Assembly: GCA_947561715.1 (NCBI GenBank)
Contig: OX387205.1
Location: forward strand, 8,499,001-8,563,000
From: Ascidia mentula
Lineage: Eukaryota; Chordata; Ascidiacea; Phlebobranchia; Ascidiidae
DNA length: 64,000 bases
Reading direction: 5' to 3'
Position numbers and translations under genes: made by a program. The notes beneath the pieces are model-generated. The model was not told where the DNA came from. It searched no databases and worked only from the letters and a program-made list of their open reading frames with translations. Positions 16,501-48,441 of this stretch are shown here, one piece after another (positions within the stretch are counted from its first letter, which is position 1; every line of letters begins with the position of its first letter).

Positions 16501-17578
16501 GCGGTAAAGGAAAGAAATAATTCCCCTTCAAGTATGTGTAAAAGAACATTTTGGTACAAAGGCTCTGATATAAAAACAAGTATATCTGCCCCCAAGAGCA
16601 CAAGGAACAATTCAAAGACATTCGACACATACTTAATTAATTACAAGCAACAACGTAACAAAGCATGAATCACTTTCTAAATTCTTTGCATAGTTGTGAG
16701 TAAGCATGGTGCTCTACAACCTATAATTATTTGTTGACAACGAGCAACAATTAAATCTACAGGTCCAAAGAATTTAAATGATTTAAGCACTATGAAAAAC
16801 TCATGTAACTTCCCATTTGGCCACAACACTCTAGCCCAGTTAACTCTACTCGTATAGCTACCTTTATTCTACAGCTTTAGTCCAAAAGCGAACTACAATA
16901 GTTTAAAAAGCCTTTCGTTGTCTAACTGGTAATTGCGCAGCCTGCAAATCAGATCGACCAACTGACATCAAGGGTAACGAGTCAAGGAAAGCTTTCAATC
17001 ATACAAGTTACAGTTGAGGAATATTGGATAAACGTTATTTATAAAAAAAAACTATGTTTTTTAATCCTCCGCTTGATTCCCAGGCGTCACTTTGCCAATA
17101 ATTGCCTGAAGAATGTCTTAACAACGCTTAACAGGGTAATTACCATCTCATTATCCTGCACTAAGACAGCATTATGGGTGGCAAGCTTTGCTTTAACGAA
17201 AGCCGCTGATCCACTGAATTGACCAAGAAAAACGTGCGCCCATCTTTCAAACTGTGATATTTTGCAGAACTCTAATTGGGGTTTATTGCGTTGGGCAGTT
17301 GGTTGAAGCTATGGTTGATTGATGAATGTTTCTTTGATTAAAGAGAAAACACGTGTTTAGGTTGTTTTAACAAGGCGGTTTGTCGGGACTTTACAAGCCC
17401 CAGCCAGCGGTTTTGAGCGAAGTGGACAAATTCGGTTGATGCTATGATTGATTAACAAATAGTTCTACGAGTTTTTCAAGGACATCTTTTGGTTGTGGAC
17501 GCTACAACGAAAACACACGTGTAAAATCAGACGGCATCCATGAAAATGCGGCGCTCTTTTTTAGATAGCTGAATATGA

Positions 17579-17741
17579 AAAGCAGCAGACAAAGTGTGTA
17601 CACGCACTATTTCGACCTGTAAGGTCTCATCAGTGAAGCTGTTGACAGTGGCACTGTGCTAGCTTTTACACTAGCGGGCACACTATAATTTCCACTTTGT
17701 GGCACCTTTCGGTCAACGTCGATCCGATGGGTACCCTATAC
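17579..17741 (-). mobile_element. Damaged copy of the hammerhead-bearing inverted-repeat element
   Basis: Aligns by eye with the left 165 bp of the intact element at 33060-33354, including GTGTGTACACGCACT, CGACCTGTAAGGTCTCATCAG, the GCTAG/CTAGC hairpin and a diverged TCGATCC segment, with scattered substitutions and small indels. The right half, with the second inverted repeat, is absent or unrecognisable. Strand is given for the ribozyme-bearing orientation. Confidence 0.75.
17581..17640 (-). ncRNA. Candidate hammerhead ribozyme motif (decayed copy)
   Basis: On the minus strand the order is stem I strand AGCTTCA, core CTGATGA, stem II GACC-TTACA-GGTC, core GAAA, then AGTG...CACT able to form a stem III hairpin, then GTC, then TGCTGCT. 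All core residues are present. Stem I has two internal mismatches, so cleavage by this copy is doubtful. Confidence 0.45.
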
Positions 17742-20537
17742 TTTTTTGCACATATATATGAAAAGCTATATCAAATTAAAAAAAATGAACCGTGTAACAC
17801 TTTCAGGCAGTTGCCTTCGTATAAAACAAACTGATATGTTTAATTTCCTTTCGCAAAACCAGTCTACAAGTATAGTTCCATTAGTACTCACCAAGCCGCA
17901 GTCTATTTTGCCCAAAATGTCTGACATACCTGCCTTTCATGTAGTAGTAAGTGTCTAATGGCAAATGGAGATGAATTGTTTGCGTACATTGAAATAGGGA
18001 TAGGGCGAGGGAATGAGCTTTGCCAACGAGCAGGCGATTTATTCCCATCAATGAAGACAGATGACTTTTAAATCCCGATGTCTGCGTCTGTCGTTTTGTT
18101 AAAGCTTGCAGAAATTTGCTTCAGATCACAGCTTGGGGCGTCAAATAGGTTTGTGGAGTCTTATCTCTGTCCAAACCAGGCAGGAATTTTGCGAATGCAG
18201 AACGGAGGCCAAAAATAGAATTTTCACTTCTATTCTGCTGTTCTTGCGGTGTTACAAGTTTTACGAGGTTTGAACACTGGAGAAATATAACCTTTTATAA
18301 AACACCATATTTGTTCACCCAAAGAACGACGCTGAGTTGGGTTGCCTTTGTTTTTATAAGACTAAAAGGGTCTTGTAAAAGATTACAAACCGCATCCATA
18401 AATTTTGAAAAGAAGAATCGTTTTACGACTGAAGATCCCAATGTTAGTGGAGGGTCTGAAAAGTGCGGTTTATGTAATATGTTTAACAAGAAAAAATGTT
18501 TCCACAAAATGATACCAAAAATAAATGCAGTATATATATATATACATGGGTATATGAGTGAAGCGCTTTGACGAATTTTGTTTAAATCATTGATTTTTTT
18601 TCAACACCGGGATATCCTGGGCACGTTGGGCGCCTGAACAACGCTGAAAAAAATATTTACAGCTCCAGACGACATCGTGCGGAGTGGGAAATCATTAATC
18701 GATCTAATAATTTAAACCAGGCAGGAATTCTTGTTTTAAAGACTGAAATATTACATATGTTTATCAAGCTGTCGAAGATAATTTTTTTATTATGTTTCTG
18801 TTTCCGGTGTCAAATCTCAAAATGAAATGATAATTGTCGAAGTGAGCTGTAGACGGGGTCACTATTTTGACCAACCAGTGCAGTTTGGTGCAGATTGTTT
18901 GCTCTAGTGCCTACTCCTATATGAATTTCGTATCGGTTTTTCAGCAGTTGCTTGGCCGCATTGTGTCTTTCCTGGGTTTGTTTCTGGTGGTTTGAACCTA
19001 TGTCAGCGATTAAAAGTCAATATATAACGTGGAAGCCTTTTCCGGGCTGTTCGGCATTTCTTGTGCTCAGATCTGTGACTTGCAACAAAGGCTGATATAT
19101 TTATGCTGGGTAGGGTCACAACTGCCAGCCTTTCTTTCTATTAAGTCCCTGATTTACACGTTTGCATAGGACCTCCATTATTGGATAGCCTACATCTTGG
19201 ACGGAAGTCGGTAACCCACGGTTTCGGTGCCACATGTGGTTCTTTCAAGTACGCAATTTCACGTGTAGCTTCTGGTAAATATAGTGTTACGTAATTCCAA
19301 TACCACGCAGTTATGTATCAAATGATTCTTTTATTTTAAGGTTATACACGCATTCTTATTCATCTATTCTATAGAATTGAGCATGATTATCCGCACTAGC
19401 AAGTACTACGAGATAAAATGTCATAATAGTATACTATGATTTAAAAACGGGCGGCTGGAATCTTAATATTTGAAGAAACTGCATGTATCTCTTTATTCTT
19501 TCGACTAAATATCGTTAAGCATAAACATGTTTGGTTGAAAATGAACATATTTGTACATTTGTACAACGCCGCCAATTAAGCAAATACGCCACATATATAA
19601 AATTTTGAAGGTTATGATGACGTCATGGTAACAAATTATGACGCAACAATGTTGCCGCCCACCATATCAAACGCACATAACTTTGCCGTTTTTTCAATGG
19701 ATTTCGATGAATTTTGCACAAGTTGCATAGAATGGCACGTAAAAATGAAAATTCCATCAATTTTGAGGACAAATATTTTTATATATTGCCATAAATCGGC
19801 CATAACTATTAGGACATTACAGAATTATTTCGCGTTTCTACGAACAATACGTAAATTAATGACGTTCGAATTTTTTTACCTTTGAATTTTTATTGGTAAT
19901 TCTTCATAAACTGTGAAGAAAATTGGGTATAAAAGGACTGGGTCGTGTTCAAAGTTTTGTGGACCGGAAAAGGATGATGTAAATACATGTACGTAGCTCT
20001 CTGCGCAGTGTGTTTGTTACCCTTTTACAAAGGTGTTTGCAGGCAGATTTCGCATATATGTGTGAAGAAATATTGGTAAAATTGGATTCTACGAGTACGA
20101 TGACCCACAACAATATAGTCAAATTTTATTGTGGTTGTGGTAGACGCGTTATTACGGAGACCAGCAAAAAGGAAAAATGAATATAGACAAAGGAGAAAAG
20201 CTTTTGTAATTATTTTCAGCCTTGTCATGTGAGGAGCTGGTTTGACTCAGTTCCGAAACCATCTTCCTTGATAAACGTTACTCCTGTCAAAAGACTGATA
20301 GACAGGAGAGGAAATTAGATTTACCGGAAAGTGCAGATGACATAACTTCAAATTCTAATTTATTAACTGCAAGACAGGATGCAAATCATTTTTATCCAAC
20401 CACTCGCAGTCTGACAACTTGGTTTTTAATACAGCATGAAAAAGGATAGGCCCATTGTTTAGTTTAGGGGAAATAAGCTTTGTCTTCCAGCCACAGAAGA
20501 TATCTTTGAAAGTTACCATTTTATAATGTAAATTTTA

Positions 20538-22684: not shown

Positions 22685-25117
22685 TCAACGGAGGGAAAAT
22701 TTAAATATTTTAACTTGGTGGTCCTGACCACAAGATGCCAAAAAAAGATCATTTGGGTTGTTTGTGTCTTTTCGTGGTCGCCATTTAAGTTGTTTTACAG
22801 CAAGACAGTGCGACATGTTAGCATCAAATGTAAACAAATCAACAAATGCATTGTTACTTTCCCCTGAAAATGAGACAATTTTTATTTTTCCGCTCTCAAG
22901 TCCAACAGCTAATGTGTAGTCTTTCAAGGTGGAAAATTTGGGTGTGAATGCAACGGCTGTAACAGGTTCTTGGCAGTTGTTTACTGATTGCCTTCGAACT
23001 TTAACCTCACAAGCAGACTTGTTTTCTTCCACTAATTCCCATACCATAACTTTTTTATCTCTAGAGGCTGTTGCAAAGTAGATATTATCAAATGACCATG
23101 AACAGGACCAAATAATTCGAGCGTGGCCTTGTTTCTTTTCACTGACTGCTGCAATCTTTGTTCTGAGTCCATCTGGGGTAATTTCAATGCTGTGCAAAAT
23201 CCATGTGCGATCTCTTGAAACAGAAAGCAAATATTTGTCATTAGGTGAGAACTCCATCTGCGTTACAGTTAACACATGTCCTGGCAAAGATGCCACCTGC
23301 TCCCATGTATCTATACCCCAGAGTATAATCTCAGAATACTTGGGTTGTGAAGATTTTGCAGCAGAGGCAATTAAAGTGCCAGCATGGTTACTTGTGACAC
23401 AGAACAACTCATACACATGACCATAAAGCTTTCTGCATTCAGGCCAAAGACTGTTTTGAGCCAAATGTGTTTCAGGAGGTGGTTGCCTCAGTTCAACAGG
23501 AGTAAACAGGTTTTCTACATATTGATCACTGCTACGCTTGTCTTCCACTTTCGCATCTTTTACGCTGTCATTGGAGTACACACTTTTGTTTGAAAGACCC
23601 AATGCAGGAACAGAAGCACCCATTGGGGCTTCAGAGATGTTATCTGTAATGTTGTGCAATGTCAATTTACTGAAATTAGTAAGAAGGTTTTGTGGTGCAT
23701 CAAACACACGCAACACTTTTTCATCAGCTCCAGATACAAATCTAACACTGCTGATAGCATGTATACAGTTGAGGTCATAACCATGAATTTGTGGTCTGGC
23801 AATCTCATGCCAGGTCTTCATCCCTTCTGATGATTGCCATTCTGAAAACAGACGTGTTGTTTGATCCTCACTTGTGCTTAACAAATACCTTCCATATACG
23901 GGCTCCCAACCAATACCATTCACTGTGGATGCATGACCACTGACTGTAATGGCAGGTTTCCATTCTTGTTTTAACTGCCTTTTCCATGCATGTAATGCAC
24001 CATTAAAGGTATGTGAAATAATGTAAGTTGCATCATGGTTAAAAAACGCTCCATAAAACCCTAAAGTATTTCCGCCAACTTCTCCCATACGTACTTCGTC
24101 CAGCCAAACTTTTTGTTCATCATTATATTCCCAGATGACAACAGTTTTGTCCATTGATGCTGAAACAAGAGACAAGGTGCCCAAATTGCCATTCAACGAG
24201 CTCCACTGCACAGTGTTAACCCAGTTTTCATGGCCTGAAAGCACTGCATCAATCATGACGGTGTATTTTGTAATAATACCATCACTAGCAACTGAGGAAA
24301 AATTGTGCTGCTTTAGTCTCAAATCAAAGGATTCATTCTTTTCTTCGGTTTTGTTTGAATCTGTCTTGTAAATTTTCCAGATTCTAATATATGAATCTTG
24401 AGAGCAGCTTGCCAAAAGGATTTCGTTGCCAATTGTGGTAAAATTAACCCCTCTTACCCAATCCTCATGTCCTTTAAGATTTAAAATATTTTCACACTGT
24501 GTACTTGCAGAGCTTCCTTGAAATGTGTACAACTTTACTAAGAAGTCATCACATGCACATGCTATTATTGGGACATCACTTAACGGCAATACATGAATGC
24601 CGAGTCCAAGAACAAAGCCAAAGCCGAACTCAAATGTTTGAAAACACTCAAGGTCATTAAAACTGTTGCAACTTCTCCATAGTTTCAAATTTGAATCGGC
24701 ACCAGCTGAAACAACTATAACAACATCATTGTTTCCAACTTGTAACATAAGTCCGTCAAGGCACATGACACCTGCTTTATGAGCTTTAAGCTCTTTAGTG
24801 AAAGTTAAACTGTCATTGCCGTCACTTTTCCAACAAATAACTGTTCCATCATTTGACCCAGAAAGCAAAACATCTGTCTTTTTAAGAGTTTTATTTATCT
24901 GATTTTGCTTTTTTGCCCACTTTATCGAGATAACTTTTGCATTGTGTCGGTTTAAAGTTTGAATTCTCTGTCTTTGTTTGCAAATAATAGGTTCATACAA
25001 TACAACAGATGTGGAACAGCCGAAAGAAATTCTCCCATTTGGCCCAATGTCAAGCGAATTATGAGTACGATTTGCACTGGCAAAAATATGTTCCAATGTT
25101 ACTTTTGAAGTTTCCAT
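22685..25117 (-). CDS. ELP2: Elongator complex protein 2 (WD40 protein)
   Basis: An uninterrupted 810-residue frame. ELP2 is the two-propeller WD40 scaffold of Elongator, which modifies wobble uridines in tRNA anticodons and is tied to transcription elongation. WD repeats are visible throughout, for example GHEDWVRGVNF, SGHENWVNTVQWSS, SMDKTVVIWEY, SGHASTVNGIGWEP, PGHVLTVTQMEFSPNDKYLL and SRDKKVMVWEL. The ELP2-specific stretches RPQIHGYDLNC, FVSGADEKVLRVFDAP and VPALGLSNK between the propellers make the assignment firm. Length equals the usual 800-830 residues, so the gene is complete. It has no introns, while its neighbours are intron-rich. It converges on the copper transporter (738 bp between stops) and is head-to-head with VARS1. 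CpG is low in its coding sequence, as expected for a broadly expressed, body-methylated invertebrate gene. Confidence 0.96.
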   Translation of the reverse strand: METSKVTLEHIFASANRTHNSLDIGPNGRISFGCSTSVVLYEPIICKQRQRIQTLNRHNAKVISIKWAKKQNQINKTLKKTDVLLSGSNDGTVICWKSDGNDSLTFTKELKAHKAGVMCLDGLMLQVGNNDVVIVVSAGADSNLKLWRSCNSFNDLECFQTFEFGFGFVLGLGIHVLPLSDVPIIACACDDFLVKLYTFQGSSASTQCENILNLKGHEDWVRGVNFTTIGNEILLASCSQDSYIRIWKIYKTDSNKTEEKNESFDLRLKQHNFSSVASDGIITKYTVMIDAVLSGHENWVNTVQWSSLNGNLGTLSLVSASMDKTVVIWEYNDEQKVWLDEVRMGEVGGNTLGFYGAFFNHDATYIISHTFNGALHAWKRQLKQEWKPAITVSGHASTVNGIGWEPVYGRYLLSTSEDQTTRLFSEWQSSEGMKTWHEIARPQIHGYDLNCIHAISSVRFVSGADEKVLRVFDAPQNLLTNFSKLTLHNITDNISEAPMGASVPALGLSNKSVYSNDSVKDAKVEDKRSSDQYVENLFTPVELRQPPPETHLAQNSLWPECRKLYGHVYELFCVTSNHAGTLIASAAKSSQPKYSEIILWGIDTWEQVASLPGHVLTVTQMEFSPNDKYLLSVSRDRTWILHSIEITPDGLRTKIAAVSEKKQGHARIIWSCSWSFDNIYFATASRDKKVMVWELVEENKSACEVKVRRQSVNNCQEPVTAVAFTPKFSTLKDYTLAVGLESGKIKIVSFSGESNNAFVDLFTFDANMSHCLAVKQLKWRPRKDTNNPNDLFLASCGQDHQVKIFKFSLR

Positions 25118-31900: not shown

Positions 31901-34900
31901 CCTGAAGTATCTTTGTTGGATAACAGGCGAAACGTTGGTTAATAAAGTTTGGTTTTTATTGTGCCAGAAGAACAAACTATTAAATAACTTATACTTCTAT
32001 TTGAAGTATTGTTAAAAGCAAAACAACTCTAGAAAACAGTATTTTGTTATTCTGAATTGTAGGAACTTCACAAAACTTTGCTGACTGGCAACCTTGATGA
32101 AAAAGAAGTAGAAAGAGCTAAAGCAGGACAGAAACAAGATTATCCAAATGGAATTCCTGAATGTGGAAGTGACGCCCTGAGATTTGCCCTCTGTGCCTAC
32201 ACCTGTCAAGGTGTGACACTAATTGTACCAAAGCTGCTTATTTAGCGACTTTAAAACAAGCTCATTATTGGAAGATAACATGTTTGGTTAAGTTCACAAA
32301 CTGTTTGAAAGCAGTACCAATGGAGAATGTTGACCTATAGTAAGCTGTATTTTTGGTTTGTAGGGAAGGATATCAATTTAGATGTGAACAGGATCCTTGG
32401 CTACCGACACTTCTGCAACAAATTGTGGAATGCATTTAAGTTTGCTATGAGAGGGTTGGGTGATAATTTCTCACCCAATACAACACCAGCAGTAAGGAAT
32501 TCAATTTCTTTCTTTTGTTTTCATGTTTATATTTTTTTGCATGTTTGTTTATCGATCGAAATATATATTATACCAAAACAATCATTGAAATTGATTATAT
32601 TTGTCATTTGTGTAAAAAAATACAAACAAGTCTGTTAAGAAAAAACACCACAAGCACCAAAAAATGAAACTCCTTATCAAATTGCAGATCTCAGGCAGTG
32701 AAGGCCTTGCCGATCGATGGATTTTAAGCAAATTAGCGAAAACCATTCAACTTTCCAGTCAGGGATTGGAAACATACGAGTTTCCTGTATACACAACAGC
32801 TATTTTTAACTTTTGGCTTTATGAACTGTGTGATGTTTATCTGGTAAGATTTAGTAAATAAATTGTTTAGTACTTTATCTTAATTGCAAACTGTTCCTTG
32901 GTTAAGTCTACCCAAATGCAAATTATCAACAAACATTTTGAGTTTTTTCCCTAATATGGCATACCAATGTTTGAATTGACTTCTTTTGAGAACATATTTC
33001 AAAACAGTATTTTATTTAGTGTATGAAATAAGATACTAAAACACCAATAAAAAATATTCTGGAGAGCTGCAGACGGGGTGTGTACACGCACTGTTTCGAC
33101 CTGTAAGGTCTCATCAGTGCAGCTGTTGACAGTGGCACTGTGCTAGCTTTTACACTAGCGGGCACACTAATTTCGACTTTGTGGTACCTTATAGTCAAAG
33201 TCGATCCGTTGGATACCTAGACTGGTACCAAACAACAGTGACGAACCACTGTAGAGCGCACTATGGCCAAACGGATCTGCTTGGTAACCGATAGTGCTAA
33301 AGGCAAAAACACCAATGCAATATAATGCACACACACCTTGTCTGCAGCTCTCCAATATTGTGGATTTTTTTGCACATATAAAGTTTATTCTATTTTGTAA
33401 AAATTAAGGCTATGCCTCACAAGTCATTTTTTATCTCACTGTATCTCTATAACATTGCAGGAGTGTTTGAAACCAGTGTTTGCTGGAGAGGATCAACAGG
33501 CAATCAATATATCACGCAATGTTTTGTATACTTGTCTTGATGTTGCTCTTCGCATCACGCAACCACTCATGCCATTCATTTGTGAGGAACTGTGGCAACG
33601 GTTACCACGACGAGCTGATGACACAACACCCAGTGTTTCTGTGTCAAAATGGCCCAATGCCGATGAGGTTCATTATATTTACACTAAACCTACTTAATTG
33701 CTCTTTATTATTAAATAGTAAAGAATGCGTGTGCAGCAGTTTCAAAGTACATCACACATTGTTTATTGCAAATTCTCTGATTTCAGTTTTGTTATATGGC
33801 GTTGAAAAGTTTTTTAAGTGTGATTAACTGGCGTTTTGATCTGTTAAAAGCTAAATGTTCTTTTAGTTTCACTGATATTTGAAATCTTTTGCAGCACAAT
33901 TGGTTTGATGAAGCTGTAGAGGCAGAAATGGATTTTGCAATGAACATTGTCAAAGTGACACGATCATTACGTGGAGAATACAACCTCACTAAGACCAAAG
34001 CTGATTGTAAGTTGCTTGTTACTCCATACTTGGTGAAGTAAACACATTCTGTGCAACATCAACTTATGTTGTTTTTATTTATAGTGTATGTTCATTGCAC
34101 TGATGGTAAAAAAGTAAAGGGGGCAACCGACTACTCCTCCATTATTCAAACCCTTTCGTATTCATCAATGGTGAAAGTGATCAGTGGAGAGGAAAGGCCA
34201 CCACCGGGCTGTGCTGTTGCAATTGTCAATGACAAATGTGACATCAACCTTATGTTAAAGGTAAGCAATCTCAAAGTCAATGCCTCTTTCCTTGCAAATA
34301 TAGATGTTGTATTGATATAGTTTCTGCGTCCATTGTTAACCTATATATGTCGCTGCCAAAATGTTACAGTTATAATATTTTCACAGCATTATTTTGTGGT
34401 TGGTATGTTTTCATAGTTTGAGATTTTAACTGTGATAAACAATTACTTCATGTCAGTCATATAATGACTATCTATTACAGCAGAGTTGTGTATCCAATTG
34501 ATGCTGCTGTTGTGCAAATTAATATTACAAACTAATCTTGCATAGAATCTGCTTTGCAGGGAATTGTTGACTTTGATAAAGAAGTAGCAAAACTTCGTAC
34601 CAAGCAAGCAGAACAAACAAAAAAATTGGAAAGCCTGAAGACAAAAATGTCAAAGCCTGAATACCAAAATAAGGTTCCAGCAAACATCCAGGCTGCAGAT
34701 GCTGAAAAGGTAAAACTAATATCTTTTTTTATCAAATTGTTTAGAGAGATCCCACACAAAAGTGGTTTCTACGCTGGTTTACAAAACTATTTGAAACTCC
34801 CTAAAGTTTTTTTCAATTGTTTGACTTTATTTTCTTGTAAAAAAAGTCACGCAATAAGATTGCTTAGATTTATATCTTTATTTAACACACATTTAAAAGA

Positions 34901-37900
34901 CAAAACATAATTAATGTGTATGTAAAAACATTTAAATGCAACACAAAATTACTTAGAAACATGACAATTACAGAAAAAAAAATACACTTTTAGAGTCGAA
35001 TTTTAGGGGTTTGGGTTCATCACCCTTCCGATAAACAAAAAGGTCTGAGTTGTTTTCTCGTACAAAATGTAGTGAAATGGTTTGTACAGTACAACATTCA
35101 GTCGACCGCTCAGCACACCAATATTAGCTCCAAATGCAGCTGCAGCTTCACTACCAGTTTCATCCACCTAATTTAGGCAACATTAACAGGGCAAAATTAT
35201 GTGCAAGCGTTTTTAAAATACTCCTTGATCAGGAAAGTTATTTTTTCTACTAGGCAGAAATTTAATATTTGCCAAGAAATAATTGAGAAAATTATCCTTT
35301 TATTGGAAATTTTTCCTAAGATTAAACAATTTTTTATCAATACAATAACAAAAAAAACTTGATTGAGATTGGGATAAAAATGTGTCAACAAACTTACGGT
35401 GTAAAGTGTTTTCCTACTATAATGTCCAACAATAAAAACACTTGCCTTTAAGAGGGTCTTTTGCTTGACATCATTGACAAACAAATCATGTTGTCCATTA
35501 ATTCCGTAAAGATTTGCCCCACCCTGTTGAAAGAGCTTGCCAAAACCCATTTCCTGTAAGTGTGGCTTCAAATCATAGTCACCTTCAATTCTAAACTTGG
35601 GCATTCTTACTGATACCTGCAAGAAAACATTAGCAATTTAAATAGGGCTTCCGAAACTGCTGGTCACAATCATGTAGGGGGTCATACGTCGAACCTTAGG
35701 GCTTGCAAAAAATACAACATTTAGTTTTTCATGAAGTATGTTCTTCTTGACATTTCAGTCTTTCATTGCAATTATGTATATTGTCCAAAATTTAAACAGT
35801 TTTTCCCATAAACTTTTTTCCCATATCAATCAAGAAATAACAAAGTATAGCAGTTACTTGTTTTGGTTGGGAGCGTAAGAGATCTTTAATTGTTTTATGA
35901 AGTGAAGCTGTTGTCCATCTACTCTCAACTTCCTCGAAACCAATTGAATAATAATTGGGGATGACAATTAGGCTAACCTCAAGTTCACCTAAAAGTATAT
36001 ATTCTGGTGATTTGATCAAATATTCTATAGAATCTTGATTAAAACATTGTCCATACAGCAGACGAAACACTTTTACATGCAATGTAACCTTAGGTGGAAG
36101 ACAATATTATTTAAATGATAAGTGTTTCTTTGTGTAATAATAAGTAAAGTTACCATTTAACACGGCATATACCTGGAGATGATGTGTACGGAAGTTCGAG
36201 AAGTTCCATGTCTGCGTCATAGTCATACAAATATCTTGTTTCGATATCTTCTTTCATGTATGTGGTCTCAACTGTTACGTTCTCAGAAATTTGAAAAATG
36301 CCAGTTTTCAGTTTTGAGAAAGGTGTTACCCATGTGCCCTACAATAATAAAACCATATATCATTGAACAATTAAATACTAGTTGTTTGTTTTGGCTGCCT
36401 GAGGCTCACTGACCATTGTTGCACAAACCACAAGCATTGATTTCACTTGAGATAATGCACACGATAACGTTTTTTTCTAAAGTATGATTTGGAAACTGAT
36501 TGGATTGATAATAACATTACCTTGAAGTAAAGGGCTGTTGCCATAACAAGTTTAGTAAGGGAATCAATTGATCCACTGGGAAACATGTTGTTTATCAGAT
36601 TTCCAGTGTTTTGGTAAACCCATGTATTAATAGTGTTGCGTGCAGTTTCTGGATCAGATTGAAACTCTACCTGAAAACAATTTGTGGTTGAATTGGCAAA
36701 AAATTGGGTGGCTGCCAACTTTTTATTACATTCCCTATTATTGTTTTGTGCTTACCTCTTCCATTTTGGAGCCAAAGAACCCTGTGGATTTTCGAAATGT
36801 TGCATCTATATTTTCATCACTGTTAACAAACAGTTTACTGGCAAGGTGAAGCGTCATTGGGGAGTTTGGTGAAATTTCTCGGTATTTGTTAAAAATGCAA
36901 GATATTTCTTCTTTTTCTTTCTCTCTGAAACAAAACAGAAATTACATAGCAAAGTTAATGGAAACTAAAAAAAACTGTAGAATGTTAAAGCAGTTTAGTA
37001 GAAATGCTTATGGCTTTGTAATATCACACAAGAAAAGTATAAGTGAGTCATTTCCAAGTTTCCAAAATGGTGTTGAGACTTATTTATTTGCTTTATGTTG
37101 CTTTATTGGTGTGTTTGTTATTGTATTATTACTCAAGGTTAAAAAGACTATTTCCAACCCTAACTATCATATGTGTTATTTAGAGCAGGGGTACCCTTGA
37201 AAGAAGTTGTTGTAGAACATGGCACTCAGCATGTCTTTCTCAGTCTCGTTTGCTGCTCCCATTAGTAACATCGAAAGGCCCATGTTTATAACCACAGGTG
37301 ACAAGACCACATTCTTGTCTGCTCCCTCGCTACGTGACACTTTTTTATAAAGCTCCAGGGCAAACTTACGCTGGATCTCTGCAAGGTCGTTTATTCTACA
37401 AAATATATATACAATATATACAATGAAAATTTTGCCATAATTGGCTTTTTATTAGTTTACACAGTTTTTTATCAGATAGATTATGACATCAGCTCCAATT
37501 TTGAGTGTAAAAACATTGTTTCTAATCTTTTTAGTATTTTTTCTTGTAAACTTGCTTACCTAAATGTGTCCAGGATTTTTTAATAGAATAATTACCTGCA
37601 TTCCCTGTGGGCTAGGTTGTCATGGACAAGAGCAAAGTTTCCATTGGTGATTGACCACCCAGCCACAAACAAAAACAAAGCCAAAAGTTTGGTCATTATC
37701 CGAGGGCTAAATTCGCTGTACTTATCGAAAATTGACAAACTAACATTTATGCAGCTATTTGTCACAGATTTTATTTAAATACATTTGTCAGTTTACATTT
37801 TTATCTTTTTTTTAAGCCAACTCAAGCACTTCACACATGCTTTCTTTAAGAAAACAGAAGCATAAACCCTATAATGCTAAACTAACCCTTTTGCAAAACT

Positions 37901-41446: not shown

Positions 41447-48441
<6,995 letters not shown>

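What the first reader, a model, noticed from the sequence alone, without database searches (positions are those of the whole stretch)
33060..33354. Hammerhead ribozyme embedded in an inverted-repeat mobile element
The minus strand of this 293-bp element shows CTGATGA, a perfect 4-bp stem II with a 5-base loop, GAAAC, a GTC cleavage triplet and a perfect 7-bp stem I. These are all the invariant positions of a type I hammerhead. Such ribozymes are established in Penelope-like retroelements and retrozymes, but those are not bounded by terminal inverted repeats. Here the stem I partner TGCAGCT is part of the terminal inverted repeat, so the predicted cut falls 11 bases inside the element end. Because both ends carry GTC-TGCAGCT on opposite strands, cleavage could define RNA ends of a transposing or circular form. 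That last step is inference.
Basis: partly seen in the sequence, partly recalled or inferred. Interest (0 to 1): 0.9.

Follow-up and report, generated by a model that had tools for sequence, protein, structure and literature searches.

The report
Ribozyme retroelement with Penelope insertion marks
This is an old copy of a small animal retroelement that carries a self-cutting RNA (hammerhead ribozyme), and the way its copies are inserted looks like the work of Penelope-type reverse transcriptases, which would point to the long-suspected helper of such elements.

Summary
The hammerhead motif is real: the minus strand of 33061-33128 holds a complete type I core, which recurs in a dispersed family. 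The element is not an inverted-repeat DNA transposon. It is one insertion of a roughly 290-bp non-LTR retrozyme, a known animal kind (PMC7229834), in an unnamed Wnt-bearing genome. Relatives form head-to-tail tandems (280-304 bp periods in 7 of 8 loci chosen for this). The "terminal inverted repeat" arises because copies meet head to head (30 of 46 mapped loci; none tail to tail), so both outer ends show the same sense 3' end. Of 20 non-redundant head-to-head insertions with an 8-14 bp target duplication, 17 have one end 9-15 nt and the other 35-45 nt past the predicted ribozyme cut (L070 partly by mapping). Seven without a clear duplication were set aside; one fits. Penelope-like elements (PLEs) of the same genome share the layout: 11-14 bp duplications, one short and one long end, in 5 of 5 arrays with a clear duplication of 8 examined. 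A PLE enzyme is known to prime both strands from two internal start sites (PMC11167929). I infer PLE mobilisation. The window copy itself is decayed and probably inactive.

The parts
33047..33059 (.). left target-site duplication ATAAAAAATATTC (13 bp, imperfect)
   Evidence: 10 of 13 match the right copy; placed by eye, not picked by the automatic finder
33060..33377 (-). the whole insertion (318 bp): retrozyme unit with its sense strand on minus, plus a short inverted piece
33060..33324 (-). main retrozyme unit; its sense 3' end faces left and stops 12 nt past the predicted cut (short end)
   Evidence: unit mapping (L001 1501-1775, unit 38 to 20), end distance
33061..33128 (-). type I hammerhead ribozyme with flanking nucleotides
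   Evidence: model R1 97.9 bits (this copy is in the training set)
33118..33124 (-). stem I, 5' strand AGCTGCA
33111..33117 (-). CTGATGA catalytic core
33098..33110 (-). stem II GACC-TTACA-GGTC
33093..33097 (-). GAAAC
33075..33092 (-). stem III and its loop; contains the copy-specific C that breaks a family-wide A-U pair
33072..33074 (-). GTC cleavage triplet; predicted cut between 33072 and 33071
   Evidence: cut position by the known hammerhead rule (recalled)
33065..33071 (-). stem I, 3' strand TGCAGCT
33331..33377 (+). inverted (head-to-head) piece of a second copy; its sense 3' end faces right and stops 35 nt past the cut position (long end); no catalytic core
33378..33390 (.). right target-site duplication ATAAAGTTTATTC
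17584..17755 (-). second insertion of the same family in the window (172 bp, truncated), with 11-bp duplications ATATGAAAAGC at 17573-17583 and 17756-17766 (placed by eye)
   Evidence: (75.8 bits, not in the model's training set)

Best explanation
The feature is one old insertion of a non-autonomous, non-LTR retrozyme family of roughly 290-bp units, each with one type I hammerhead ribozyme. Proposed working: transcripts of tandem copies cut themselves at each GTC^TGCAGC, releasing unit-length RNA that can be closed into circles; a Penelope-like reverse transcriptase/GIY-YIG endonuclease nicks both strands of the target about 12 bp apart and primes reverse transcription from both nicks, one at a start site about 12 nt and the other about 38 nt past the ribozyme cut; the two cDNAs, sometimes more than one unit long, meet and are joined head to head. 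This yields a duplication of about 12 bp, a short and a long outward-facing sense end, and the apparent terminal inverted repeat. Shown from sequence: the ribozyme motif, tandem units, head-to-head layout, duplications, the two end positions, and PLEs with the same geometry in the same genome. Inferred: RNA cleavage, circles, and mobilisation in trans by PLE proteins.
For: Tandem periods of 280-304 bp in 7 of 8 loci chosen as likely tandems. Of 46 mapped loci 30 are head to head with outward sense ends, 16 single-orientation, 0 tail to tail. Duplication score of at least 9 in 25 of 46 loci (19 after merging duplicated loci) against 2.8% of 600 mismatched left/right pairs. One short (+9 to +15) and one long (+35 to +45) end in 17 of 20 duplication-bearing non-redundant head-to-head insertions: 16 measured by script, L070 with its long end from the mapping; at independent even odds 17 or more has probability 0.0013. 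The 20 duplications are 77% A+T against 63% in the surrounding loci L001-L030. PLEs of the same genome: 5 of 5 arrays with a clear duplication have one flush end and one 27-43 nt longer, with 11-14 bp duplications; RT plus GIY-YIG above cut-off in 3 of 4 frames scanned. Hammerhead 57 of 60 identical between one copy each of subfamilies A (L082) and B (L071) against 177 of 226 ungapped columns elsewhere, Fisher p = 0.002. The isolated 68-nt hammerhead is the minimum-energy fold in 3 of 4 variants. PMC11167929: a PLE enzyme cuts and extends both strands and starts RT at two adjacent internal sites that explain the 30-40 bp genomic tail.
Against: No covariation (0 of 18 pairs; 3 of 18, as in shuffles). 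No Rfam match at gathering; a whole-genome search with RF00163 found nothing, though no control genome responded either. No sequence shared between PLE units and the retrozyme in loci L031-L070 at E 1e-3, apart from what look like retrozyme pieces near them, so the specific helper is unidentified. The retrozyme tail (22-34 nt) is shorter than most PLE tails seen here (27-43). Three of the 20 do not fit strictly: W17 (short end +4 to +11, depending on microhomology), L003 (+19 and +10), L020 (+29 and +12). Of 7 further head-to-head insertions without a clear duplication only 1 (L027) fits; L015, which I merged with L030 because they share internal junctions, has both ends mapped to the long position and no duplication. 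In a 124-nt context only L071 of 7 informative copies has the ribozyme junction as its minimum; four, the window copy included, prefer a competing GCACUG/CAGUGC helix. In PMC11167929 hammerhead activity was not needed for insertion in vitro. RNA activity is untested here.
Confidence: 0.77

Rival explanations
1. A miniature inverted-repeat DNA transposon that happens to contain a hammerhead; the repeats are real TIRs cut by a transposase.
For: 24-nt inverted repeat at 92%; several relatives end in the same sequence on both sides.
Against: Outer ends are asymmetric, one about 12 and one about 38 nt past the cut; duplication length varies (8-14 bp); direct tandem arrays exist; single-orientation inserts with duplications lack the second end (L072, L073, L078); in relatives the second arm is only the outward end of a longer head-to-head copy (L071, L076, L028, L030).
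Confidence: 0.04
2. A retrozyme mobilised by a LINE or other non-LTR enzyme, the inversion arising by twin priming as in L1.
For: Inversions and 10-15 bp duplications also occur with L1-type twin priming (recalled); LINEs are named as possible helpers in PMC7229834.
Against: Twin priming starts the inverted part at variable internal sites (recalled), whereas here both outer ends sit near two fixed sites in 17 of 20; no A-rich tail is seen at the ends printed; PLE arrays in the same genome have the same geometry.
Confidence: 0.13
3. The ribozyme is vestigial: the family spreads as SINE-like, PLE-dependent repeats from linear transcripts, and conservation of the hammerhead reflects binding of PLE protein rather than cleavage.
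For: PLE insertion in vitro did not need hammerhead activity (PMC11167929); no covariation; competing fold in four of seven informative copies in 124-nt context; tandem arrays could come from linear multimers.
Against: One intact ribozyme sequence recurs in 12 segments of subfamily B, and the commonest differences between subfamilies lie in loops or just outside stem I, although stem positions 9 and 19 vary too; the isolated hammerhead is the minimum fold in 3 of 4 variants; animal retrozymes with this plan are cleaved and found as circles in coral, mussel and axolotl (PMC7229834).
Confidence: 0.15

Closest known systems
Metazoan non-LTR retrozymes (Cervera and de la Pena 2020, PMC7229834; parts 1-4 of 6 of the text read)
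   Same: 170-400 nt unit with one type I hammerhead, direct tandem copies, no LTR, duplications longer than 4 bp; G+C of five units here 46-48% against <50% in their text (<45% in their Figure 1 legend).
   Different: The paper describes direct tandems and suggests PLEs as helper from shared hammerheads, tandem habit and co-existence; the parts I read do not describe head-to-head insertions with a short and a long end.
Penelope-like elements, EN-containing (PMC3846280, passages; PMC11167929, parts 1-2 of 4)
   Same: Head-to-head or inverted outer repeats, optional 30-40 bp tail at one end, short duplications, tandem units; PLEs are reported to carry hammerhead motifs.
   Different: The retrozyme has no comparable ORF and has a hammerhead with a real stem III, and it shares no detectable sequence with the PLE units examined.
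Newt satellite, Schistosoma and cave-cricket hammerhead repeats (named in the introduction of PMC7229834)
   Same: Hammerhead repeats of animals; about 330 bp in newts.
   Different: Their insertion-end geometry was not compared here.

Membership tests
Hammerhead ribozyme, type I | Conserved core, GUC triplet and three stems with stem I open | tested here: met
   sub-gathering Rfam scores
Hammerhead ribozyme, type I | Compensatory changes in the stems | tested here: not met
   0 of 18 pairs in 22 copies; 3 of 18, no more than shuffles, in 40 matches; low diversity limits the test
Hammerhead ribozyme, type I | Self-cleavage | not testable with these tools
   needs an in vitro assay; the window copy has a stem III mismatch
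Hammerhead ribozyme, type I | Loop 1 / loop 2 arrangement of canonical type I | tested here: inconclusive
   native L071 folds with an internal loop and distal helix in stem I; the six other informative copies do not give the ribozyme junction as minimum (an eighth, L002, was cut from the wrong place)
Metazoan non-LTR retrozyme | Tandem units of about 170-400 bp, one type I hammerhead each | tested here: met
   the window insertion itself is a single unit plus an inverted scrap
Metazoan non-LTR retrozyme | No coding capacity, LTR, PBS or PPT | tested here: inconclusive
   no ORF over 62 aa overlapping 33060-33377; PBS and PPT were not searched for
Metazoan non-LTR retrozyme | Target-site duplications longer than 4 bp | tested here: met
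   8-14 bp in the 20 insertions; control
Metazoan non-LTR retrozyme | Expressed as linear and circular RNA | not testable with these tools
   no RNA data
Penelope-like element (as relative, not as member) | RT plus GIY-YIG coding frame | tested here: not met
   no long frame in the retrozyme; PLE frames lie elsewhere in the genome
Penelope-type insertion signature | Head-to-head ends, short plus long (tail) end, short duplications | tested here: met
   17 of 20 with duplications, 1 of 7 without, compared with PLEs
TIR DNA transposon / MITE | Two equivalent terminal inverted repeats and fixed-length duplication | tested here: not met

The most novel reading that the evidence does not exclude
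Each head-to-head insertion is the footprint of a single two-armed PLE complex working on retrozyme RNA: its two active sites sit on two adjacent start sites of the RNA at the same time, so that one nick receives the short start and the other the long start. The retrozyme would then be a true PLE parasite whose two start sites lie just past the ribozyme cut, and the short/long pair would be a genomic readout of a dimeric double-priming reaction that can be tested in any retrozyme-bearing animal.
Probability: 0.35. Interest if true: 0.75.

Novelty: new variant of a known kind. Interest (0 to 1): 0.6.

Why it matters
Which enzyme moves animal retrozymes is open: published texts name PLEs, Terminons or LINEs as candidates from shared features and co-occurrence (PMC7229834, PMC7761336, PMC11722881, PMC8969392; sections or passages seen). 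Insertions whose ends carry the PLE double-priming mark give a sequence-level test of that proposal, and the one-short-one-long pattern adds a constraint on how a PLE complex primes both strands.

Tried and rejected
TIR transposon reading: rejected on end asymmetry, tandems and single-orientation inserts. Covariation as proof of structure: tried on two alignments, no signal. Rfam RF00163 on the genome: no match, but no control responded, so uninformative. Competing GCACUG/CAGUGC helix as a regulatory switch: seen in folds; only one sequence (shared by L010, L011 and L012) changes on both sides of one pair of it while several change on one side, so not claimed. Shared sequence between retrozyme and PLE ends: none in the loci held apart from retrozyme-like pieces near PLEs. 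Two PLE loci with a divergent hammerhead at the same offset (L032, L039) proved to be near-identical duplicated DNA (98-99%), so this is not evidence of a hammerhead shared by independent PLEs. One fold was placed across an inverted junction by mistake and is not used; one of the eight folds (L002) was cut from the wrong place.

Rows dropped or merged before counts. Non-redundant head-to-head insertions: 23 from the 30 after merging L006/L009/L010/L011/L012/L020 (shared flanks), L025/L026 and L015/L030 (shared internal junctions), plus W17, L085, L086 and L088, giving 27. A second head-to-head cluster in L023 was not counted. Set aside for want of a clear duplication, 7 of 27: L007 (short plus about +29), L024 (other plus long), L027 (short plus long), L074 (long plus other), L079 (long plus about +23), L080 (about +4 plus short), L086 (both long). 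L015 taken alone would be an eighth misfit (both ends long, no duplication). Of the 20 duplications kept, 14 come from the finder at score 9 or more (some trimmed by me), L022 and L028 from the finder at scores 8 and 7, and L001, W17, L085 and L088 were placed by eye. Among the 14, 12 fit (L003 and L020 do not; chance of 12 or more at even odds 0.006). For PLEs I looked at 8 arrays (L061+L062, L063+L064, L065-L070), chosen mainly for minus-then-plus runs: 5 had a clear duplication; L061/62 and L063/64 look short-plus-long by eye without a clean duplication; the ends of L067 were not determined.

Full report
What is there. Rfam sees it only weakly: RF00008 33.8 bits, E = 1.3e-5, in a 421-base search, and nothing at gathering in the window. 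In 14 of the first 30 loci hammerhead families appear below gathering only. That genome has 36 places matching the Wnt family, with no match in the 14 control genomes of the tool, which where named are prokaryotes; Wnt being animal-specific (recalled), I take the host to be an animal. The element lies just upstream of a plus-strand coding stretch (33455-33694) that matches the anticodon-binding domain of tRNA ligases; upstream plus-strand frames look to me like parts of the same synthetase, but I did not test them. I therefore take it to be in an intron (inference), where the host pre-mRNA would carry the complement of the ribozyme.

A dispersed family. A search with the element found 80 places among the 40 best-scored of 1782 first-look candidates; a search with a second subfamily found 143 places among 40 scored of 1978. 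The candidate numbers are not validated copy counts. Eight loci that looked tandem were measured; 7 show direct repeats with periods of 280-304 bp. The ribozyme region of 74 aligned segments (55 distinct) shows core and stems largely kept; the commonest differences lie in loop II, the loop of stem III and just outside stem I, but stem positions 9 and 19 also vary (46 of 55 each keep the common base). Between one native copy each of subfamilies A (L082) and B (L071), 57 of 60 ribozyme positions are identical against 177 of 226 ungapped positions elsewhere (Fisher p = 0.002); this is one comparison, not a genome-wide one. Covariation gives no support.

The inverted repeat explained. Mapping 46 loci onto tandem units gives 30 head-to-head, 16 single-orientation and no tail-to-tail arrangements (main cluster of each locus): where two orientations meet, the sense 3' ends face outwards. 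The window insertion is 33060-33377 with an imperfect 13-bp duplication (10 of 13) that I placed by eye; the automatic finder did not choose it. Among 46 loci, 25 (19 after merging duplicated loci) have a duplication score of at least 9 against 2.8% of 600 mismatched pairs. The 20 duplications used below are 77% A+T against 63% in L001-L030.

Two favoured end positions. For 20 non-redundant head-to-head insertions with a duplication I measured the distance from the predicted ribozyme cut to each junction. In 17 one end lies at +9 to +15 and the other at +35 to +45: 16 by script, and L070 with its long end from the mapping. W17 is a near fit (short end +4 to +11 by microhomology, long end by mapping). 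L003 and L020 do not fit. Seven more without a clear duplication were set aside and only L027 of them fits (details under tried and rejected). If each end were short or long independently at even odds, 17 or more of 20 would have probability 0.0013.

The same geometry in Penelope-like elements. A GIY-YIG search of the genome listed 150 matches, many in long open frames and several in minus-then-plus runs. Four frames were scanned: three have both RVT_1 and GIY-YIG above cut-off; the fourth has RVT_1 just below cut-off and no GIY-YIG at E 0.001. Of eight arrays fetched, five have a clear duplication of 11-14 bp, and all five have one end flush with the inverted repeat (0 to -7) and one end 27-43 nt longer (from the self matches). 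Published work fits this: a purified anole PLE protein cuts and extends both strands and starts reverse transcription at two adjacent internal sites whose spacing is the genomic tail (PMC11167929, parts 1 and 2 of 4 read); bdelloid Penelope elements have inverted pseudo-LTRs, a tail at one of them, 8-10 bp duplications in the cases I read (some have none), and head-to-head as the most frequent inverted arrangement (PMC3846280, passages).

How it probably works. Transcription of tandem copies, self-cleavage at GTC^TGCAGC, ligation to circles (known for animal retrozymes, PMC7229834), double-nick priming by a PLE enzyme at two start sites, and joining of the two cDNAs. The steps from RNA cleavage to PLE use are inferred. 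The particular helper PLE is not identified, and the retrozyme tail (22-34 nt) is somewhat shorter than the PLE tails seen. In the anole assay hammerhead activity was not needed for insertion, so the ribozyme may serve unit-length or circular RNA rather than integration itself.

State of the window copy. It is a single unit with one core, so it could not release a unit-length RNA by itself. It has a stem III change that makes the ribozyme fold no longer the minimum, and in 124-nt context it prefers a competing helix. Of eight copies folded in that context one (L002) was cut from the wrong place; of the other seven only L071 (subfamily B) gives the ribozyme junction as minimum. Circular folds of five native units are more stable than dinucleotide shuffles (z -2.7 to -3.6).

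Literature check. Searches of the held open-access library with retrozyme, hammerhead and Penelope terms listed no paper that I could see to report Penelope-type ends on retrozymes; I judged by titles, abstract starts and the passages I opened, and long lists were cut. Two relevant papers, PMC4209133 and PMC8557442, are not held, so prior description cannot be excluded.

The end-position count was lowered from 18 to 17 of 20 because W17 fits only loosely; I lowered the main confidence slightly and the odds of the boldest reading from 0.4 to 0.35 for that and for L015.

Noticed in passing
window 17584-17755: A second, truncated insertion of the same retrozyme family with 11-bp duplications, not part of the finding I was given.
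   Followed up: yes
window 42273-42303: A weak model match (22.7 bits) holding GAGCTGCAGAC without a core; probably a retrozyme scrap or chance.
   Followed up: no
L025:2377-2435, L022:934-995, L064:9823-9886, L068:102-157, L050:685-747, L032:940-998, L016:2665-2724: Divergent hammerhead-like matches with much the same stem I but other stem III loops (32-49 bits): older or sister retrozyme families in the same genome; L025 and L032 share 79 bp at 82%.
   Followed up: partly
L061-L064: Nearly identical tandem and head-to-head PLE arrays (units of 2870 and about 3490 bp, 99-100% identical, frames of 886 and 943 aa), suggesting recent activity.
   Followed up: partly
L067: A PLE locus embedded in a tandem repeat of about 138 bp.
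   Followed up: no
window 22685-25117: An 810-aa uninterrupted frame of WD40 repeats.
   Followed up: no
window 36443-36718 and 42628-43131: Frames matching serpin and matrixin (Peptidase_M10) families.
   Followed up: no
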